Of a stretch of DNA of 64,000 nt, positions 21,383 through 56,684 are shown one piece after another. This DNA is from Amycolatopsis thermoflava N1165 (GTDB taxonomy: Bacteria > Actinomycetota > Actinomycetes > Mycobacteriales > Pseudonocardiaceae), in the NCBI RefSeq assembly GCF_000473265.1, contig NZ_KI421511.1, forward strand, positions 8,406,415 to 8,470,414. Reading direction: 5' to 3'. A model generated the notes under the pieces. It had not been told where the DNA came from. It did no database searches and saw nothing but the letters and a program-made list of their open reading frames with translations. The translations under genes and the position numbers were made by a program. How positions within the stretch are numbered: the first letter of the stretch is position 1; every line of letters starts with the position of its first letter.

Positions 21383-21439
21383 GGATGTCCATACTCGTCG
21401 GCTACGATCGTGTTAACCGGGAGTATTCGCAGGTGAGGG

Positions 21440-22027
21440 GTGTGCGCGGTGGTGTCAGGGCAGGCGGCCGGATCGCGCCGGCAGCGTCCCAACGATCCCG
21501 GACGGCGCACGAAGATCGCGCGCGCCGCCATCGACGTGGTGGCCGAGCGGGGAATCGACGGGCTTACCCACCGGGCGGTCGCCGCGGCCGCGGGGGTGCC
21601 GCTGGGCTCGACGACGTACCACTTCCGGACGCTGGACGACCTGCTCGAGGTCGCGCTGAGCCAGGCGGCCGAGGACAACGTCCGCCGCCTGCGGGAGTGG
21701 GAGCGCGGCGTGCCGCCGGACGCGGACTTCGCGGGCGCGCTGGCGGAGCTGGTGATGCGGTACGTGCGGGACGAGGGGCCGCACACGGTGGTCGAGTACG
21801 ACCTCTACGTGGCGGCCATGCACCGCCCCCGGTTGCGCCCGGTGAGCGCGGCGTGGGACGACGCGCTGATCGAGCTGTTCGGCTCCCGGACGGACCCGCT
21901 GACCGGGCGCCTGCTCGCCGGACTGTTCTGCGGTCTGCTGATGCAGTTGGCGATCGCGGACGGCACGCCCTCTACTTCGGACATCGAGGCGCTGTTCCGC
22001 CGCGCGATCGCCGGTCCTGCCTGCTGA
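21440..22027 (+). CDS. betI: TetR family regulator, BetI-like
   Basis: A 195-residue TetR protein. The HTH reads TKIARAAIDVVAERGIDGLT, then HRAVAAAAGVPLGSTTYHF, the GxxxGSTTYHF form typical of BetI-like members. Divergence from the bet operon supports a choline-responsive repressor role. The GTG at 21440 follows AGGTGAGGGG; a GTG a few codons later is also possible. Its stop lies 17 bp before the first palindrome of the large repeat array. Confidence 0.72.
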   Translation: MCAVVSGQAAGSRRQRPNDPGRRTKIARAAIDVVAERGIDGLTHRAVAAAAGVPLGSTTYHFRTLDDLLEVALSQAAEDNVRRLREWERGVPPDADFAGALAELVMRYVRDEGPHTVVEYDLYVAAMHRPRLRPVSAAWDDALIELFGSRTDPLTGRLLAGLFCGLLMQLAIADGTPSTSDIEALFRRAIAGPAC

Positions 22028-22044
22028 GCCTTTTCCGGCCGGCG

Positions 22045-22922
22045 ATGAATGGACCGTTCATCGAGGCACGATTGGTCGGCCCCGCAGACCTATGAACGGA
22101 CCATTCATCGGGGTGCGACATGCCCACTCGCTCGGAGGCATGAGTGGACCGTTCATCCAGCCGCGACAGATCCCATGGCGGCGGTATGAGCGGATCATTC
22201 ATCAAGCCATGACATGCTGACCGGCTCCCAAGGGATGAATGGACCGTTCATCGCGGCGCCGCCGGCGCACCCGTTCGCGAAGGAGTGAACGGGTCGTTCA
22301 TCGACGCGCGACTGGCCCACCGGCGAATCGATGAACGTACCGTTCATCGGGGCGCGACATGCTCAGCCACTCGCGAAGGCATGAACGGGCCGTTCATCCA
22401 TCCACCACAGACCGCGTGGCGGCAGCATCAACGGGCCAATCATCGAGCCATGACATGCTGACCCGCTCTCAAGGGGTGAATGGACCGTTCATCGCGGCGC
22501 CACCGGCGCACCCGTTCGCGAAGGAGTGAACGGGTCGTTCATCGACGCGCGACTGGGCCACCGGTGAACCGATGAACGAACCATTCATCGGGGCGCGAGA
22601 TGCCCACCGGCTCGAAGGCATGAACGGACCGTTCATCCACCCACCACAGACCTCGCGGTGGCAGCATGAACGGACCATTCATCAAGCCATGACATGCTGA
22701 CCTGCTCTCAAGGGATGAATGGACCGTTCATCGCGGCGCCACCGGCCCATCCACTCGCGAAGGCGTGAACCGGTCATTCATCGACGCGCGACTGGCCCAC
22801 CGCCGAACCGATGAACGGACCATTCATCGAGGCGCCACCGGTCCACCCACTCGCGAAGGGATGAACGGACCGTTCATCCACGACCACAGACCCCGTCATC
22901 GCGGCATGAATGGGCCGTTCAT
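22045..22922. repeat. Array of 19 copies of a 17-bp palindrome with ~240-bp higher-order period
   Basis: Nineteen copies of consensus ATGAACGGACCGTTCAT (perfect palindrome about a central base) start at 22045, 22092, 22140, 22186, 22235, 22285, 22331, 22381, 22427, 22476, 22526, 22572, 22620, 22666, 22715, 22765, 22811, 22861 and 22906. Spacing is 45-50 bp. The intervening ~30-bp sequences are not unique: they repeat every five units (copies at 22235, 22476 and 22715 are followed by nearly the same spacer, 239-241 bp apart). Copy 22427 is the most degenerate. The array fills the gap between the converging betI-like and ferredoxin reductase genes, and the last copy supplies the reductase stop codon. 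Function unknown; protein-binding sites are the simplest reading. Confidence 0.9.
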
Positions 22923-24082
22923 ACCGGCTCCGGAGCGGCGGCGCGCAGCTCGCGGCGCCAGCGGCCGAACACCTTCGGCTGGTTCATCGCGAACACGGCC
23001 ACCGGACGGTCGCCCCGCCGGAACACGGCGCTGAACCGGCGCGCGGCCGGGTCGCCGTCGACGACCTCCATCCGGTCGCCGTCGCGGCGGTGGCCCGCGA
23101 ACTGCAGGCGCGCCCCGTACTGATCGGACCAGAAGTAGGGCGCGCGCGGGCTGGGCAGCTGCTCCTGACCGAGCAGGGTCGCCGCGGCGGTGGCCGGTTG
23201 CTCGAGCGCGTTGGTCCAGTGTTCGAGCCGGATCTCGGCGCCGGCGAACGGGTTGTGCGACACCGCGCAGTCGCCGACCGCCACCACCGACGGGATGCCG
23301 GTCGCGCACCGGGCGTCCGTCCGCACGCCCCGCTCCGCGTCCAAACCGGACCCGGCCAGCCACTCGGTGTTCGGCACCGCGCCGACCCCCACGACCACGA
23401 CGTCCGCAGCCAGTTCGCGGCCGTCGGTCAGGTGCACCGACCGCACCCGGTCCGCGCCGGTCAGCCCGGCCACGCCGACGCCGGTGATCAGCTCGACCCC
23501 GTGCTCGCCGTGCAGCGCCGCGCACACGCCGCCCAGCTCGGCGCCGAGCGGTCCGGCGAGCGGCACGGCCTGCTGCTCGACCACCGTGACCGCCAGGCCG
23601 AGCCCGCGGGCGGTCGAGGCCACCTCGGCGCCGATGAACCCGGCCCCGATCACCACCAGCCGCGCGCCCGCAACAAGCTCCGCCCGCAGCGCGATCGCGT
23701 CGTCCAGGGTGCGCAGGGTGTGCACACCGGCGAGCGGCGAGCCCGGCAGGCGGCGGGCCCGCGCGCCGGTCGCCAGGACCACGCCGTCGCAGACGATCCG
23801 CTCGCCCGAGTCGAGCACGATCGTCCGCAGCGCCGGGTCCAGGGCCACGGCCCGCGCGCCCAGGCGCCAGTCCACGTCCAGGGCCTCGTCGTCGCTCTCC
23901 AGCGCCAGCTCGGCCGCGGACATCGTGCCCGCGAGGAACTCCTTCGACAGCGGCGGCCGGTCGTAGGGCCGGTGCGGCTCGTCGCCGACGACGACCACCC
24001 GCCCGTCGAAGCCGGCCTCCCGCAGCGCGCGCGCCGTGGACAGGCCGGCCAGCGACGCGCCGGCGATGGCGATCACGCGCAT
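22919..24082 (-). CDS. FAD-dependent ferredoxin reductase (Rieske oxygenase reductase type)
   Basis: A 387-residue flavoprotein of the oxygenase-coupled NADH-ferredoxin reductase family. It has the FAD site IAGASLAGLSTARALREAGF, PYDRPPLSKEFL, the NAD(P) site LVVIGAGFIGAEVASTARGL, the GVGAVPNTEWL segment, and VVAVGDCA. It passes electrons from NAD(P)H to a Rieske ferredoxin, encoded directly upstream with a one-base TGATG overlap. In this region the likely end acceptor is the betaine-type Rieske oxygenase at 40257; that pairing is inference. Its TGA stop is formed by the last palindrome of the repeat array. Confidence 0.85.
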   Translation of the reverse strand: MRVIAIAGASLAGLSTARALREAGFDGRVVVVGDEPHRPYDRPPLSKEFLAGTMSAAELALESDDEALDVDWRLGARAVALDPALRTIVLDSGERIVCDGVVLATGARARRLPGSPLAGVHTLRTLDDAIALRAELVAGARLVVIGAGFIGAEVASTARGLGLAVTVVEQQAVPLAGPLGAELGGVCAALHGEHGVELITGVGVAGLTGADRVRSVHLTDGRELAADVVVVGVGAVPNTEWLAGSGLDAERGVRTDARCATGIPSVVAVGDCAVSHNPFAGAEIRLEHWTNALEQPATAAATLLGQEQLPSPRAPYFWSDQYGARLQFAGHRRDGDRMEVVDGDPAARRFSAVFRRGDRPVAVFAMNQPKVFGRWRRELRAAAPEPV

Positions 24083-24522: not shown

Positions 24523-25312
24523 ATGCGGAACAACGAGCGCTCTACGAACGGGTCCGCGAGTCAGGTCCAGTCGGTGGACCGGGCGATCGCCATCCTGGAC
24601 ATCCTGGCCAGACGGGGCGAGGCCGGCGTCACCGAGATCGCCCAGGAACTGGACGTGCACAAATCCACCGCGTTCCGCCTCGTCGGCGCGCTCGAGGCGT
24701 GGCAGCTGGTGGAACAGGTCAGCGAGCGCGGCAAGTACCGCCTCGGGTTCGGCATCGTGCGCCTGGCCGGCGCCACCACGGCCCGGCTCGACCTGTCGCG
24801 GGAGAGCCGCGCGGTGTGCGAGCGGCTCGCCGCGGAACTCGACGAGACCGTGAACGTCGCCGTGGTGGACCAGGGTCAGGCGACCAACATCATGCAGGTG
24901 TACGGCTCGGCGGCGGTGACGGCGCGGAACTGGATCGGCCAGCGCACCCCCGCTGCACGCCACCTCCAGCGGCAAGGTCCTGCTGGCCTGGGCAGGCGAC
25001 GACGACCGGGAGTCCGCGCTGGCCGAGCTGCCCGCGTTCACGCCGAACACCCGCACCGACCGGGACAAGCTCGCCGAGGAGCTCGAGCAGGTCCGCGAGC
25101 GCGGCTGGGCGTGCACCGTGGAGGAGCTGGAGGTCGGCCTCAACGCGGTGGCCGCCCCGATCCGCGCCGCGAACGGGGACGTGATCGCGGCGCTGTCGGT
25201 CTCCGGGCCGGCGTACCGGATGGAGCCGTCGTCCTATCCGGACATCGCGGAGAAGATCGTCGCCGGGGCCGAGGAGATCAGCTTCCGCGTCGGCTACCTC
25301 GGCCCGCGGTGA
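24523..25312 (+). pseudogene. IclR family regulator, frameshifted in a C5 run
   Basis: The first 142 codons encode an IclR HTH (VDRAIAILDILARRGEAGVT, then EIAQELDVHKSTAFRLVGAL) and the start of the effector domain up to NWIGQRTP. The frame is then lost at the run CCCCC (24947-24951). Removing one C restores LHATSSGKVLLAW and the rest of a normal effector domain to VGYLGPR* at 25312, giving a standard length near 262 residues. As it stands the protein would have a nonsense tail ending about 25341. This is either a real null mutation or a homopolymer error. It is divergent from the Rieske ferredoxin operon. Confidence 0.85.
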
Positions 25313-25326
25313 CGGGTGGTCCGCGG

Positions 25327-25992
25327 GTCCGTTGTCCATAGTGCGCGGCGCGGCCGGTTTGCGGGCGTTGCCGGATGGCCGCGTGCCGGTGGAATGCTCG
25401 GGGGCGGGGGCGCCTCGGCATTGTGGCCCGCTCGGTTGTGGCTCGGCGGGGTCCGTTGTCCATAGTGCGCGGCGCGGCCGGTTTGCGGGCGTTGCCGGAT
25501 GGCCGCGTGTCGGCGGAATGCTCGGGGGCGGGGGCGCCTCGGCATTGTGGCCCGCTCGGTTGTGGCTCGGCGGGGTCCGTTGTCCATAGTGCGCGGCGCG
25601 GCCGGTTCGCGGGCGTTGCCGGATGGCCGCGTGCCGGCGGAATGCTCGGGCGCGGCGGTGCCTCGGCATCGCGGCCCGCTCGGGTGCGGCTCGGCGGGGT
25701 CCGTTGTCCATAGTGCGCGGCGCGGCCGGTTTGCGGGCGTTGCCGGATGGCCGCGTGTCGGCGGAATGCTCGGGGGCGGGGGCGCCTCGGCATTGTGGCC
25801 CGCTCGGTTGTGGCTCGGCGGGGTCCGTTGTCCATAGTGCGCGGCGCGGCCGGTTCGCGGGCGTTGCCGGATGGCCGCGTGCCGGCGGAATGCTCGGGCG
25901 CGGCGGTGCCTCGGCATCGCGGCCCGCTCGGGTGCGGCTCGGTGGGTCCGCTGTCCACAGTGCACGGCGCGGCCGGTTCGCGGGCGTCGCGG
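25327..25992. repeat. Tandem array of a 124-bp unit, 5 full copies plus a partial
   Basis: Units beginning GTCCGTTGTCCATAGTGCG start at 25327, 25451, 25575, 25699 and 25823 (exactly 124 bp apart) and 25946 (123 bp; partial, about 47 bp). Two subtypes are visible: A (units 1, 2, 4; containing GGGGGCGGGGGCGCC) and B (units 3 and 5; GGCGCGGCGGTGCC in that place). Because 124 is not divisible by 3, every reading frame changes from unit to unit, so it is not a protein repeat. It fills the gap between the converging iclR and purU genes, beginning 15 bp after one stop and ending at the other. Confidence 0.92.
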
Positions 25993-55345: not shown

Positions 55346-55970
55346 GCTTCGAGGTGGCGCGGGGATCGCAGGCCCGGCGCCCGGTCTGCGCGGCCGGGCC
55401 CTGGGCCTGCCGCGCCCGCGGCTGCGCTGGCCGCCGGGCCTGCCGCGGCGCGGCTGCGCTGGGCCTGCGGCGCCGCTCTGCGGCGGCATTCAACGCTGGG
55501 GGCCGGCCCAGCCGCTGATCGCCCGGGCGCTCGGCCGCGCCGGTCGGCGGTGCCCGGCGATTCCGGGGTGGGCCGCGGTCATCGCTGCCTGGTCGGGGAA
55601 TCGGCCGCGCCGGTCGAGGGAGCCTGGCGCCCCTGGGTGGCGCTGCGGCTGCCGGGAATCACCGGCTCGATCGCGGTCAGCGGCCGAGGGCCGGCCGCAG
55701 ATCGCTCGGCCGCGTGCCGCTCGATGCGGCCAGGCGGTCCCGGGCCCGGCAATCGCCGGTGCCATCGCGGTCAGCGGCCGAGCGCCGGCGCGGCGGCCGA
55801 TCGCCCGGGCGCTCGGCCGCGCCGCTCGGTGTGGCGAGGCGGTCTCGGGCCGCGGCCGGGGATCACCGGTGAGATTGCGGTCGGTGGCCGTGGGCCGGCA
55901 GCAGATTCGCTCGGCCGCGCCCTTTGATGCGGCGAGGGGCCCGCGGCCGGGGTCGCCGGTGCGAGCGTGG
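55346..55970. repeat. GC-rich degenerate tandem repeat (~90-110 bp period)
   Basis: This 625-bp gap between converging genes is extremely GC-rich and repetitive. A motif like ATCGCGGTCAGCGGCCGAG recurs at about 55670, 55764, 55874 (diverged) and 55964 (diverged), and the 25-bp block starting GATCGCCCGGGCGCTCGG occurs at 55517 and again near 55797. The last unit merges into the 3' end of the ArsR-type gene: its final codons and TGA (the TCAGCGGTCGAG part) match the unit start. No protein coding is supported; frames change between units. Confidence 0.75.
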
Positions 55971-56684
55971 TCAGCGGTCGAGCACCAGGCCCGGCAGCAG
56001 GGCCCCCAGGCGGTCGCCCGCGTCGGGGTGGAGGGTCAGCGTTCGGCCGTCCGCGTCGACCTCCACCAGGCCCTCCGTGCGCAGCCGGGTCAGGATCGCG
56101 TGCCCGAGGGCGCCTCCCAGGTGCGGGCGGCGCAACGTGCGGTCCAGGCAGCTCGTCGCCGTCTTGCGGCGGCCTGTCGTCAGCGTGTCCGCGTCGATGC
56201 CCAGCCGCGCCAGCACCTCCGCCGCCCGCGGGCCGAGCTCCAGCTCGTCGGTGTCGGCCCGGCGGCGGAGCGCGTCTTCGGCCAGCAAGTGGTCCAGCAC
56301 GGCCACCCCGAGCCGCCCGGCCGCGTGGTCGTAACACAGCCGCTCCGGTGGCGCGGCCGGGCCGGGCAGCGGGAGCGCACCGCCCGCGTAGTCGGCCAGC
56401 GCGTCCAGCACCGCGGTGATCGCGGGGTCCTTCAGCCGGTACGTGACATGCCGCCCGCTCTGCGACGTCACCACCAGCCCGGCCTGCCGCAGCTTCGCCA
56501 GGTGGTTGCCCAAGCGCGCCGGTGTCACGCCGAGGACGTCCGCCAGCTGGGTCATCCCGTGCGGCCCCTCGTGCGCGAGCAGCTGCAGCACCGTCAGCCG
56601 GATCGGGTCGGCCAGCTCGCGCGCCAGCCCGGTCACTGTCGCCACCACCGGCTGCTCGGCGCTGGTCCATCCGAGGGAGGTCAC
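55971..56684 (-). CDS. ArsR-type winged-helix regulator with C-terminal domain
   Basis: A 237-residue protein: an N-terminal ArsR-like HTH (LARELADPIRLTVLQLLAHE, QLADVLGVTPARLGNHLAKL, GRHVTYRLKDPAI) and a second domain with CYDHAAGRLGVAVLDHLLA and RTLRRPHLGGALGHAI. This two-part form occurs in actinobacterial ArsR regulators paired with MFS exporters. Cys/His residues of the C-terminal domain (C144, H146) could sense a ligand or metal. Divergent from an MFS gene. Confidence 0.8.
   Translation of the reverse strand: MTSLGWTSAEQPVVATVTGLARELADPIRLTVLQLLAHEGPHGMTQLADVLGVTPARLGNHLAKLRQAGLVVTSQSGRHVTYRLKDPAITAVLDALADYAGGALPLPGPAAPPERLCYDHAAGRLGVAVLDHLLAEDALRRRADTDELELGPRAAEVLARLGIDADTLTTGRRKTATSCLDRTLRRPHLGGALGHAILTRLRTEGLVEVDADGRTLTLHPDAGDRLGALLPGLVLDR

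What the first reader, a model, noticed from the sequence alone, without database searches (positions are those of the whole stretch)
22045..22922. Array of 19 near-identical 17-bp palindromes at helical-scale spacing in a 3'-3' gap
Seen directly: 19 copies of ATGAACGGACCGTTCAT-like palindromes, start-to-start 45-50 bp, covering 878 bp between converging genes. Each site is perfectly two-fold symmetric about one base, like a dimeric regulator's operator. Symmetry is kept even where bases vary, as with paired changes around the centre. This is not a terminator (one hairpin would do), not CRISPR (spacers repeat, no cas), and not iterons of a plasmid (no rep). Inference: a multivalent platform for a DNA-binding protein acting in chromosome organisation, transcription insulation or decoy titration.
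Basis: partly seen in the sequence, partly recalled or inferred. Interest (0 to 1): 0.88.

Follow-up and report, generated by a model that had tools for sequence, protein, structure and literature searches.

The report
Chromosomal arrays of short palindromic sites
A soil bacterium related to Amycolatopsis carries 19 copies of a 17-letter, nearly mirror-symmetric DNA word in the gap between two genes; relatives carry similar arrays in other gene gaps, in one genus spaced in whole turns of the DNA helix, so they are probably docking platforms for an unknown DNA-binding protein.

Summary
The array is real: 19 sites of ATGAAYGGNCCRTTCAT at 22045-22922, 45-50 bp apart, between converging TetR and ferredoxin-reductase genes. 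It is one of at least seven arrays in this 8.69-Mb Amycolatopsis-type genome. Eight of 19 genomes of the genus carry many sites; 44 arrays found fall into 20 loci, nine shared by two to six species. Between species the core is better conserved than the spacers, and the period can switch at one locus. Arm bases differ between clades but stay paired (C/G, G/C, T/A). In Actinosynnema, spacings sit on whole helical turns (best period 10.5 bp).

Best reading: a DNA-level, multivalent platform for an unidentified dimeric DNA-binding protein. Tested and not met: RAYT-type REP, dedicated-ParB centromere, plasmid iteron, T-run terminator. An RNA 3'-end role and selfish spread remain open. Closest known kind: unexplained ~52-nt noncoding tandem repeats of Bacillus; 12 of 18 consensus units tested also contain a dyad.

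The parts
22045..22922 (.). array of 19 near-palindromic 17-bp sites, spacing 45-50 bp
22088..22896 (.). super-repeat, period about 239 bp (5 sites), 3.4 copies
   Evidence: Tandem Repeats Finder
22045..22061 (.). site 1; left edge of the array relative to G014's array-free gap
22092..22108 (.). site 2
22140..22156 (.). site 3
22186..22202 (.). site 4
22235..22251 (.). site 5
22285..22301 (.). site 6
22331..22347 (.). site 7
22381..22397 (.). site 8 (perfectly symmetric)
22427..22443 (.). site 9
22476..22492 (.). site 10
22526..22542 (.). site 11
22572..22588 (.). site 12
22620..22636 (.). site 13 (perfectly symmetric)
22666..22682 (.). site 14
22715..22731 (.). site 15
22765..22781 (.). site 16 (least symmetric: 4 of 8 pairs)
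22811..22827 (.). site 17
22861..22877 (.). site 18 (perfectly symmetric)
22906..22922 (.). site 19; holds the stop codon of the reductase gene (TCA at 22919-22921 on +)
21440..22027 (+). left flanking gene, TetR-family regulator (PF00440, PF17940)
22919..24082 (-). right flanking gene, FAD ferredoxin-reductase type (PF07992, PF14759)

Best explanation
The array is a chromosomal, DNA-level binding platform. Each TGAANGGNCCNTTCA dyad is the operator of a dimeric sequence-specific DNA-binding protein that has not been identified; several dyads in a row let dimers on one DNA contact each other (in Actinosynnema at whole helical turns, in this window on alternating faces) and build a multi-dimer complex between transcription units. 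Its most likely use is architectural: holding or insulating the DNA between neighbouring genes, a job for which the exact gene neighbours do not matter. Shown: the array, its relatives, core conservation between species, helical phasing in Actinosynnema, location in intergenic gaps mostly behind 3' ends in Amycolatopsis, turnover of loci and periods. Inferred: that a protein binds, that it is a dimer, and the architectural role.
For: Actinosynnema-type arrays (7 named A. pretiosum loci and one locus of the unnamed genus g28; equal spacings within a locus merged, n=38) have spacings on whole multiples of 10.5 bp: R=0.56, phase 0.2 bp, p printed as 0.0000 in 20,000 simulations, best period 10.5 in a scan of 8-13. 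Amycolatopsis loci show the same more weakly (at most one mismatch: n=51, R=0.36, p=0.0014, best period 10.2). Between neighbouring units (241 pairs) the 12 fixed core positions are 0.88-1.00 identical, flanking spacer positions about 0.57. Against the G002 orthologue of the window array core identity is 183/192, spacer 378/462 (p=2e-6). The skeleton TGAA.GG.CC.TTCA keeps its two-fold symmetry between clades although the free arm base changes: C/G and T here, G/C in G016, T/A in Rhodococcus. Among 9 co-directional loci G.U-compatible sites do not prefer the sense strand (3 lean for, one of them mixed; 5 against; 1 tie; my reading), as expected for DNA rather than RNA recognition.
Against: No protein is identified. 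The window's own spacings range over 45-50 bp, almost half a turn, and are in antiphase, so strict alignment is not needed here. In the wider Amycolatopsis set (at most two mismatches, n=57) R is 0.25, p=0.026, and 12.0 fits better than 10.5; in Actinosynnema without the 22-25 bp spacings the best period is 10.8. Among the three block copies inside the window the core is not significantly better kept than the spacer (165/180 against 397/462, p=0.06), and the variable site positions are no better kept than spacer (35/48 in the G002 comparison). Positions 6/12 show no compensating change. G014, 96% identical in the reductase, and G005 and G011 lack this array at the same gene pair, so it is dispensable. 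Where phasing is strongest the 3'-end position is not strict: of 10 clusters in g28 and A. pretiosum, 2 convergent, 3 co-directional, 2 divergent, 3 unclassified. Sites were found by match to a consensus, and units of unequal length were compared without gaps, both of which favour core over spacer.
Confidence: 0.5

Rival explanations
1. REP/BIME-like transcribed elements: the palindromes act as RNA at transcript 3' ends, as weak bidirectional terminators or exonuclease blocks.
For: Both strands of the gap fold far better than shuffles (z -7.7 and -8.6). In Amycolatopsis 1 of 19 classified loci is divergent, like the distribution described for REPs (PMC3733652, passages read). G005 and G011 have a single strong hairpin (about -29 kcal/mol) in the same gap. 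G016 has 134 matches to the doublet pattern, those listed being mostly 45-bp inverted doublets, and one site at the tip of a 20-bp palindrome.
Against: Single sites are weak hairpins (-3.4 to -5.2 kcal/mol) and nearly unpaired on the strand where the site holds a C.A mismatch; no T-run terminator in the gap; no sense-strand preference (weak test); helical phasing in Actinosynnema has no RNA explanation. Any array of mutually complementary sites folds well, so the z-scores are not specific.
Confidence: 0.22
2. Selfish or neutral satellite: a palindromic unit that inserts and spreads by recombination between arrays, with no host function.
For: In G014 the two sides of the gap meet, to within a base, where the outer palindromes begin and end here, with no visible target duplication; arrays at different loci match each other, for example 68% over 744 bp (window and L011) and 75% over 350 bp (two G003 arrays), palindromes included; the period differs between orthologous loci; loci come and go between species; recent super-unit duplication; core not significantly better kept inside the window.
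Against: Core conserved over spacers between species; helical phasing; no IS200/RAYT-type transposase in 18 of 19 genomes; orthologous loci kept in up to six species.
Confidence: 0.2
3. Decoy: the array titrates a conventional transcription factor whose working operator is a single TGAACGGNCCGTTCA-type site elsewhere.
For: The site looks like a TetR-type operator (recalled, not tested); many sites per genome.
Against: Of the 49 rows with at most one mismatch in this genome (strands counted apart), 47 lie in the seven arrays; the free arm base changes between clades; the adjacent TetR coding sequence persists in array-free relatives.
Confidence: 0.05
4. Centromere-like cluster as in F sopC, bound by a ParB-type protein.
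For: sopC is twelve 43-bp tandem repeats with 16-bp inverted repeats (PMC6238139, passage read), a very similar layout.
Against: Each of 19 genomes has exactly one ParB_N match at E up to 0.001, arrays or not; no par gene among the six flanking proteins scanned; no plasmid match; up to seven arrays in one genome.
Confidence: 0.03

Closest known systems
Noncoding tandem repeats of constant ~52 nt (and 20-21 nt) in Bacillus and other bacteria (Subirana and Messeguer; PMC8161180: outline with abstract, sections 3.2, 4.1, figures and tables, and passages read; PMC6749651: outline with abstract, two sections and passages read)
   Same: Noncoding, several families per genome, species-specific sequence, conserved short words often with their reverse in the same unit, partial conservation between strains; function unknown, a polymerising nucleoid protein proposed. 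Of 18 of the 27 consensus units in Table 1 that I tested, 12 hold a dyad stronger than 95% of 60 base shuffles. Amycolatopsis mediterranei is listed with 23 satellites; I did not see their sequences.
   Different: Here one dyad skeleton is shared across genera of two families, the period takes several values (23, 46-50, 52, 74, 84, 94) and can differ at one locus between species; the main text of PMC8161180 has no word beginning 'palindrom'.
F-plasmid sopC centromere (PMC6238139, passages)
   Same: Tandem units of 43 bp with 16-bp inverted repeats, bound specifically by ParB
   Different: Chromosomal, several loci, no extra ParB gene
REP/BIME elements with RAYT transposases (PMC3733652, passages)
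   Same: Short palindromes, clusters, mostly between convergent or co-directional genes
   Different: No GTAG/CGTC tag, shorter, no RAYT-type gene in 18 of 19 genomes, helical phasing in one genus
Bidirectional intrinsic terminators
   Same: Position; a strong hairpin occupies the same gap in G005 and G011
   Different: No T run, weak individual hairpins, up to 19 copies

Membership tests
Subirana-Messeguer type noncoding tandem repeats | noncoding tandem array, several per genome | tested here: met
Subirana-Messeguer type noncoding tandem repeats | constant repeat length of 52 (51-53) or 20-21 nt | tested here: not met
   window 45-50 bp; other arrays 52, but also 23, 74, 84, 94
Subirana-Messeguer type noncoding tandem repeats | conserved short words and their reverse within the unit | tested here: met
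REP (GTAG/CGTC) with RAYT | GTAG or CGTC tag beside the stem | tested here: not met
   no fixed tetranucleotide beside 280 aligned sites
REP (GTAG/CGTC) with RAYT | Y1 (RAYT) transposase in the genome | tested here: not met
   PF01797 in 1 of 19 genomes (G012, which has no site), not in the own genome
REP (GTAG/CGTC) with RAYT | located mainly in convergent or co-directional gaps | tested here: met
   Amycolatopsis: 9 convergent, 9 co-directional, 1 divergent, 1 ambiguous of 20 loci (own reading of overlapping ORFs); but 2 divergent of 7 classified in g28 and A. pretiosum
sopC/parS centromere | tandem units each with an inverted repeat | tested here: met
sopC/parS centromere | dedicated ParB gene | tested here: not met
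   one ParB_N match in each of 19 genomes
sopC/parS centromere | protein binding and segregation function | not testable with these tools
   needs ChIP and genetics
intrinsic terminator | G+C-rich stem followed by a T run | tested here: not met
   0 found in 21400-23100
CRISPR | unique spacers between repeats, cas genes | tested here: not met
   spacers themselves repeat with a 239-bp period; six flanking proteins scanned: TetR, reductase, Rieske, IclR, aldehyde dehydrogenase, formyl transferase
plasmid iterons | on a plasmid beside rep | tested here: not met
   8.68-Mb contig; no plasmid match
helically phased multi-dimer operator platform (works like) | site spacing on whole helical turns | tested here: inconclusive
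   strong in Actinosynnema, weak in Amycolatopsis, antiphase in the window

The most novel reading that the evidence does not exclude
Pseudonocardiaceae and some Rhodococcus carry a chromosome-wide system of phased dyad arrays: a fast-evolving dimeric protein, not yet known, reads one free arm base per half-site (C, G or T by clade) and polymerises across dyads set at whole (or alternating half) helical turns, forming insulating or bridging nucleoprotein bodies in intergenic gaps; arrays are re-made at the same loci with new periods, and the unexplained 52-nt dyad repeats of Bacillus are the same kind of device.
Probability: 0.3. Interest if true: 0.82.

Novelty: new variant of a known kind. 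Interest (0 to 1): 0.62.

Why it matters
Constant-length noncoding tandem repeats in bacteria have been catalogued without a demonstrated mechanism (PMC8161180). Here are arrays in which the conserved word, its symmetry, its helical phasing (in one genus) and its locus turnover can all be read from sequence, in culturable soil actinomycetes (recalled). That makes the question of what binds such repeats directly testable by one pull-down.

Tried and rejected
Rejected: RAYT-mobilised REP; dedicated ParB centromere; plasmid, phage or virus origin; an Rfam family (none at gathering score); T-run terminator; RNA sense-strand selection (weak test, 9 co-directional loci); arm covariation inside the genus.

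Led nowhere: the L013 locus in G005 and G011 has another gene between the flanks, so it gives no array-free comparison. Literature: nine searches. In the listings shown I saw no description of these arrays, but lists were cut (for example 12 of 99) and most papers were seen only as titles and abstract starts; six literal core words gave 0 papers. Only openly licensed PMC papers are searchable, and the same authors' earlier survey of bacterial tandem repeats, cited in PMC8161180, was not read.

Known weaknesses: gene calls for context are my own ORF scoring; in four arrays a large ORF overlapped the array and the printed label was doubtful (I took loci 02 and 04 as co-directional from their other members and left locus 16 ambiguous). 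The 44 arrays come only from regions fetched because they held sites, so single sites and array-free loci are under-sampled. The list of 2-mismatch places was cut, so seven arrays is a minimum. L178 was left out of the final phasing test as a presumed orthologue of L177, which I did not check. Spacing p-values assume independence after merging equal spacings within a locus. In the pooled seven orthologous comparisons core identity is 701/782 and spacer 1682/2315, some regions being used in two pairs. The named-genome scan may leave out the window's own or very near records.

Full report
What is there. Window 22045-22922 holds 19 copies of a 17-bp near-palindrome, consensus ATGAAYGGNCCRTTCAT, start-to-start 45-50 bp. 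Five-site blocks of about 239 bp repeat 3.4 times, so the array grew partly by duplication of blocks. It fills the gap between a TetR gene (21440-22027, +) and an FAD ferredoxin-reductase gene (22919-24082, -); the last palindrome holds the reductase's stop codon. Symmetry is good, not perfect: 3 of 19 sites are symmetric in all 8 pairs, 8 in 7, 8 in 6 or fewer. Mean spacing is 47.8 bp = 4.56 turns; sites two apart are at 9.13 turns.

In the same genome. The core with up to two mismatches is hit 65+/78- times against 3/4 for the reversed pattern; of the 49 rows with at most one mismatch (strands counted apart) 47 fall in seven clusters at about 3.51, 6.08, 6.77, 7.20, 7.75, 7.77 and 8.43 Mb of C1. 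Fetched, these are arrays of 4-19 sites.

In relatives. TGAAYGGNCCRTTCA occurs in 14 of 41 genomes searched, all in the same genus: 11-45 copies in 8 of its 19 held genomes, 1-2 in 6, none in 5. G016 has 331 sites with the free arm base open but 1 with Y/R there: the 100 listed are TGAAGGGRCCCTTCA, and the listed doublets are mostly inverted pairs 30 bp apart. A pair pattern with all arm bases free finds 14 of 397 genomes of the order, in 3 of 85 genera, all of one family. In the collection of 84,980 species genomes a tighter pair pattern gives 29 stretches: 22 in Amycolatopsis, Actinosynnema and Saccharopolyspora, 3 in Rhodococcus, 3 in Priestia abyssalis and 1 in a Limnoglobus bin. The Rhodococcus sites are TGAATGG...CCATTCA; the Priestia ones are single large hairpins. 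So the arm base changes between clades on both arms at once, although within the genus positions 6/12 vary without compensation: 124 symmetric of 317 against 155 expected.

Turnover. I fetched regions around sites in eight genomes and found 44 arrays of three or more sites, in 20 locus groups by flanking DNA, nine of them in two to six species. One locus has median period 52-54 in five species and 84 in G003; another has medians 94, 74, 74, 74 and 112. Arrays at different loci match each other, for example 68% over 744 bp (window and L011), palindromes included (list cut). At the window locus G002 has a 16-site array. G005 and G011 keep both genes with no site but a single strong hairpin, and G014 (reductase 96% identical) has a short gap whose two sides meet, to within a base, where the palindromes begin and end here. 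The array is therefore optional, and its edges are palindrome edges.

Selection on the core. Neighbouring units (241 pairs) keep the 12 fixed core positions at 0.88-1.00 identity, flanking spacer positions at about 0.57 (sites were chosen by match and compared without gaps, which inflates this). Between the window and the G002 array, core 183/192 and spacer 378/462 are identical (p = 2e-6), while the variable site positions (35/48) are no better kept than spacer. Against selection, among the three block copies inside the window the difference is small: 165/180 against 397/462, p = 0.06.

DNA or RNA. Both strands fold better than shuffles (z -7.7, -8.6), which any array of mutually complementary sites would do. 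Single sites are weak hairpins, nearly unpaired on the strand with a C.A mismatch. In nine co-directional loci the G.U-bearing strand is the sense strand in 3 (one mixed), antisense in 5, tied in 1 (my reading). No T-run terminator is found. Helical phasing is the strongest pointer to DNA: in Actinosynnema-type arrays (7 A. pretiosum loci and L177 of genus g28; equal spacings merged; n=38) spacings such as 31, 42, 51-53, 62-64, 73, 84, 94, 105 and 115 fall on whole turns (R=0.56, best period 10.5, p printed as 0.0000 in 20,000 simulations), with 23 bp as the regular exception; without the short spacings R is 0.59 and the best period 10.8. Amycolatopsis loci show it weakly (at most one mismatch: R=0.36, p=0.0014, best period 10.2; at most two: R=0.25, p=0.026, where 12.0 fits better), and the window itself is in antiphase.

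Position. Of 20 Amycolatopsis loci, 9 are convergent, 9 co-directional, 1 divergent and 1 ambiguous (own reading). Against the window's own gaps of at least 40 bp (6 convergent, 13 co-directional, 8 divergent) neither the convergent excess (Fisher p 0.11) nor the divergent deficit (p 0.06) is significant. In other groups: G016, 14 clusters, 6 convergent, 3 co-directional, 2 divergent, 2 in an ORF, 1 unclassified; g28 and A. pretiosum, 10 clusters, 2, 3, 2, 0 and 3; the other Amycolatopsis loci and one Saccharopolyspora, 17 clusters, 7, 7, 0, 3 and 0; Rhodococcus, 4 clusters, 1, 3, 0, 0 and 0.

What it is not. No Y1/RAYT transposase in 18 of 19 genomes and no GTAG/CGTC tag, so not a RAYT-type REP family as described in PMC3733652 (passages). 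One ParB_N match in each of 19 genomes, so no extra sopC-like partition protein, though the layout resembles sopC (PMC6238139, passage). No plasmid, phage or viral match.

What it is like. The nearest described kind is the constant-length noncoding tandem repeats of Bacillus (PMC8161180; sections and passages), for which a polymerising nucleoid protein has been suggested. I tested 18 of the 27 consensus units printed in Table 1: 12 contain a dyad stronger than 95% of 60 shuffles. The present arrays are best filed as a new variant of that loosely known kind; constant length, one of its defining features, is not met.

Verdict. A real, multi-genus family of dyad arrays, most likely a multivalent protein-binding platform (confidence 0.5), with the protein and the exact use unknown; RNA 3'-end function and selfish spread are live rivals.

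Noticed in passing
window 25325-25987: A second, unrelated tandem array (124-bp unit, 5.4 copies) in the next convergent gap (IclR / formyl transferase); TTGTCCATAGTGC occurs five times, 124 bp apart, and the last partial unit reads CTGTCCACAGTGC, reminiscent of a DnaA box (recalled).
   Followed up: partly
window 24523-25341: The IclR-family ORF matches the IclR C-terminal domain only to residue 144; the frame looks shifted after that.
   Followed up: no
window 55652-55982: A third tandem array, about 105-bp unit, 3.4 copies.
   Followed up: no
G000:C1: dnaA lies at 5.864 Mb; if the chromosome is circular, six of the seven arrays are on one side of it and none lies in the third of the chromosome opposite to it.
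   Followed up: no
L055 1480-1540 (G016): A 17-mer sits at the tip of a 20-bp perfect palindrome just after an apparent stop codon, unlike the doublets.
   Followed up: no
L084, L088, L100 (Priestia abyssalis): Inverted TGAAAGGCCCCTTCA pair 44 bp apart within a longer repeated element, at three places of one scaffold.
   Followed up: no
L148, L157, L177, L108: A 23-bp spacing recurs in Amycolatopsis and Actinosynnema and is the commonest spacing off a whole helical turn in Actinosynnema.
   Followed up: no
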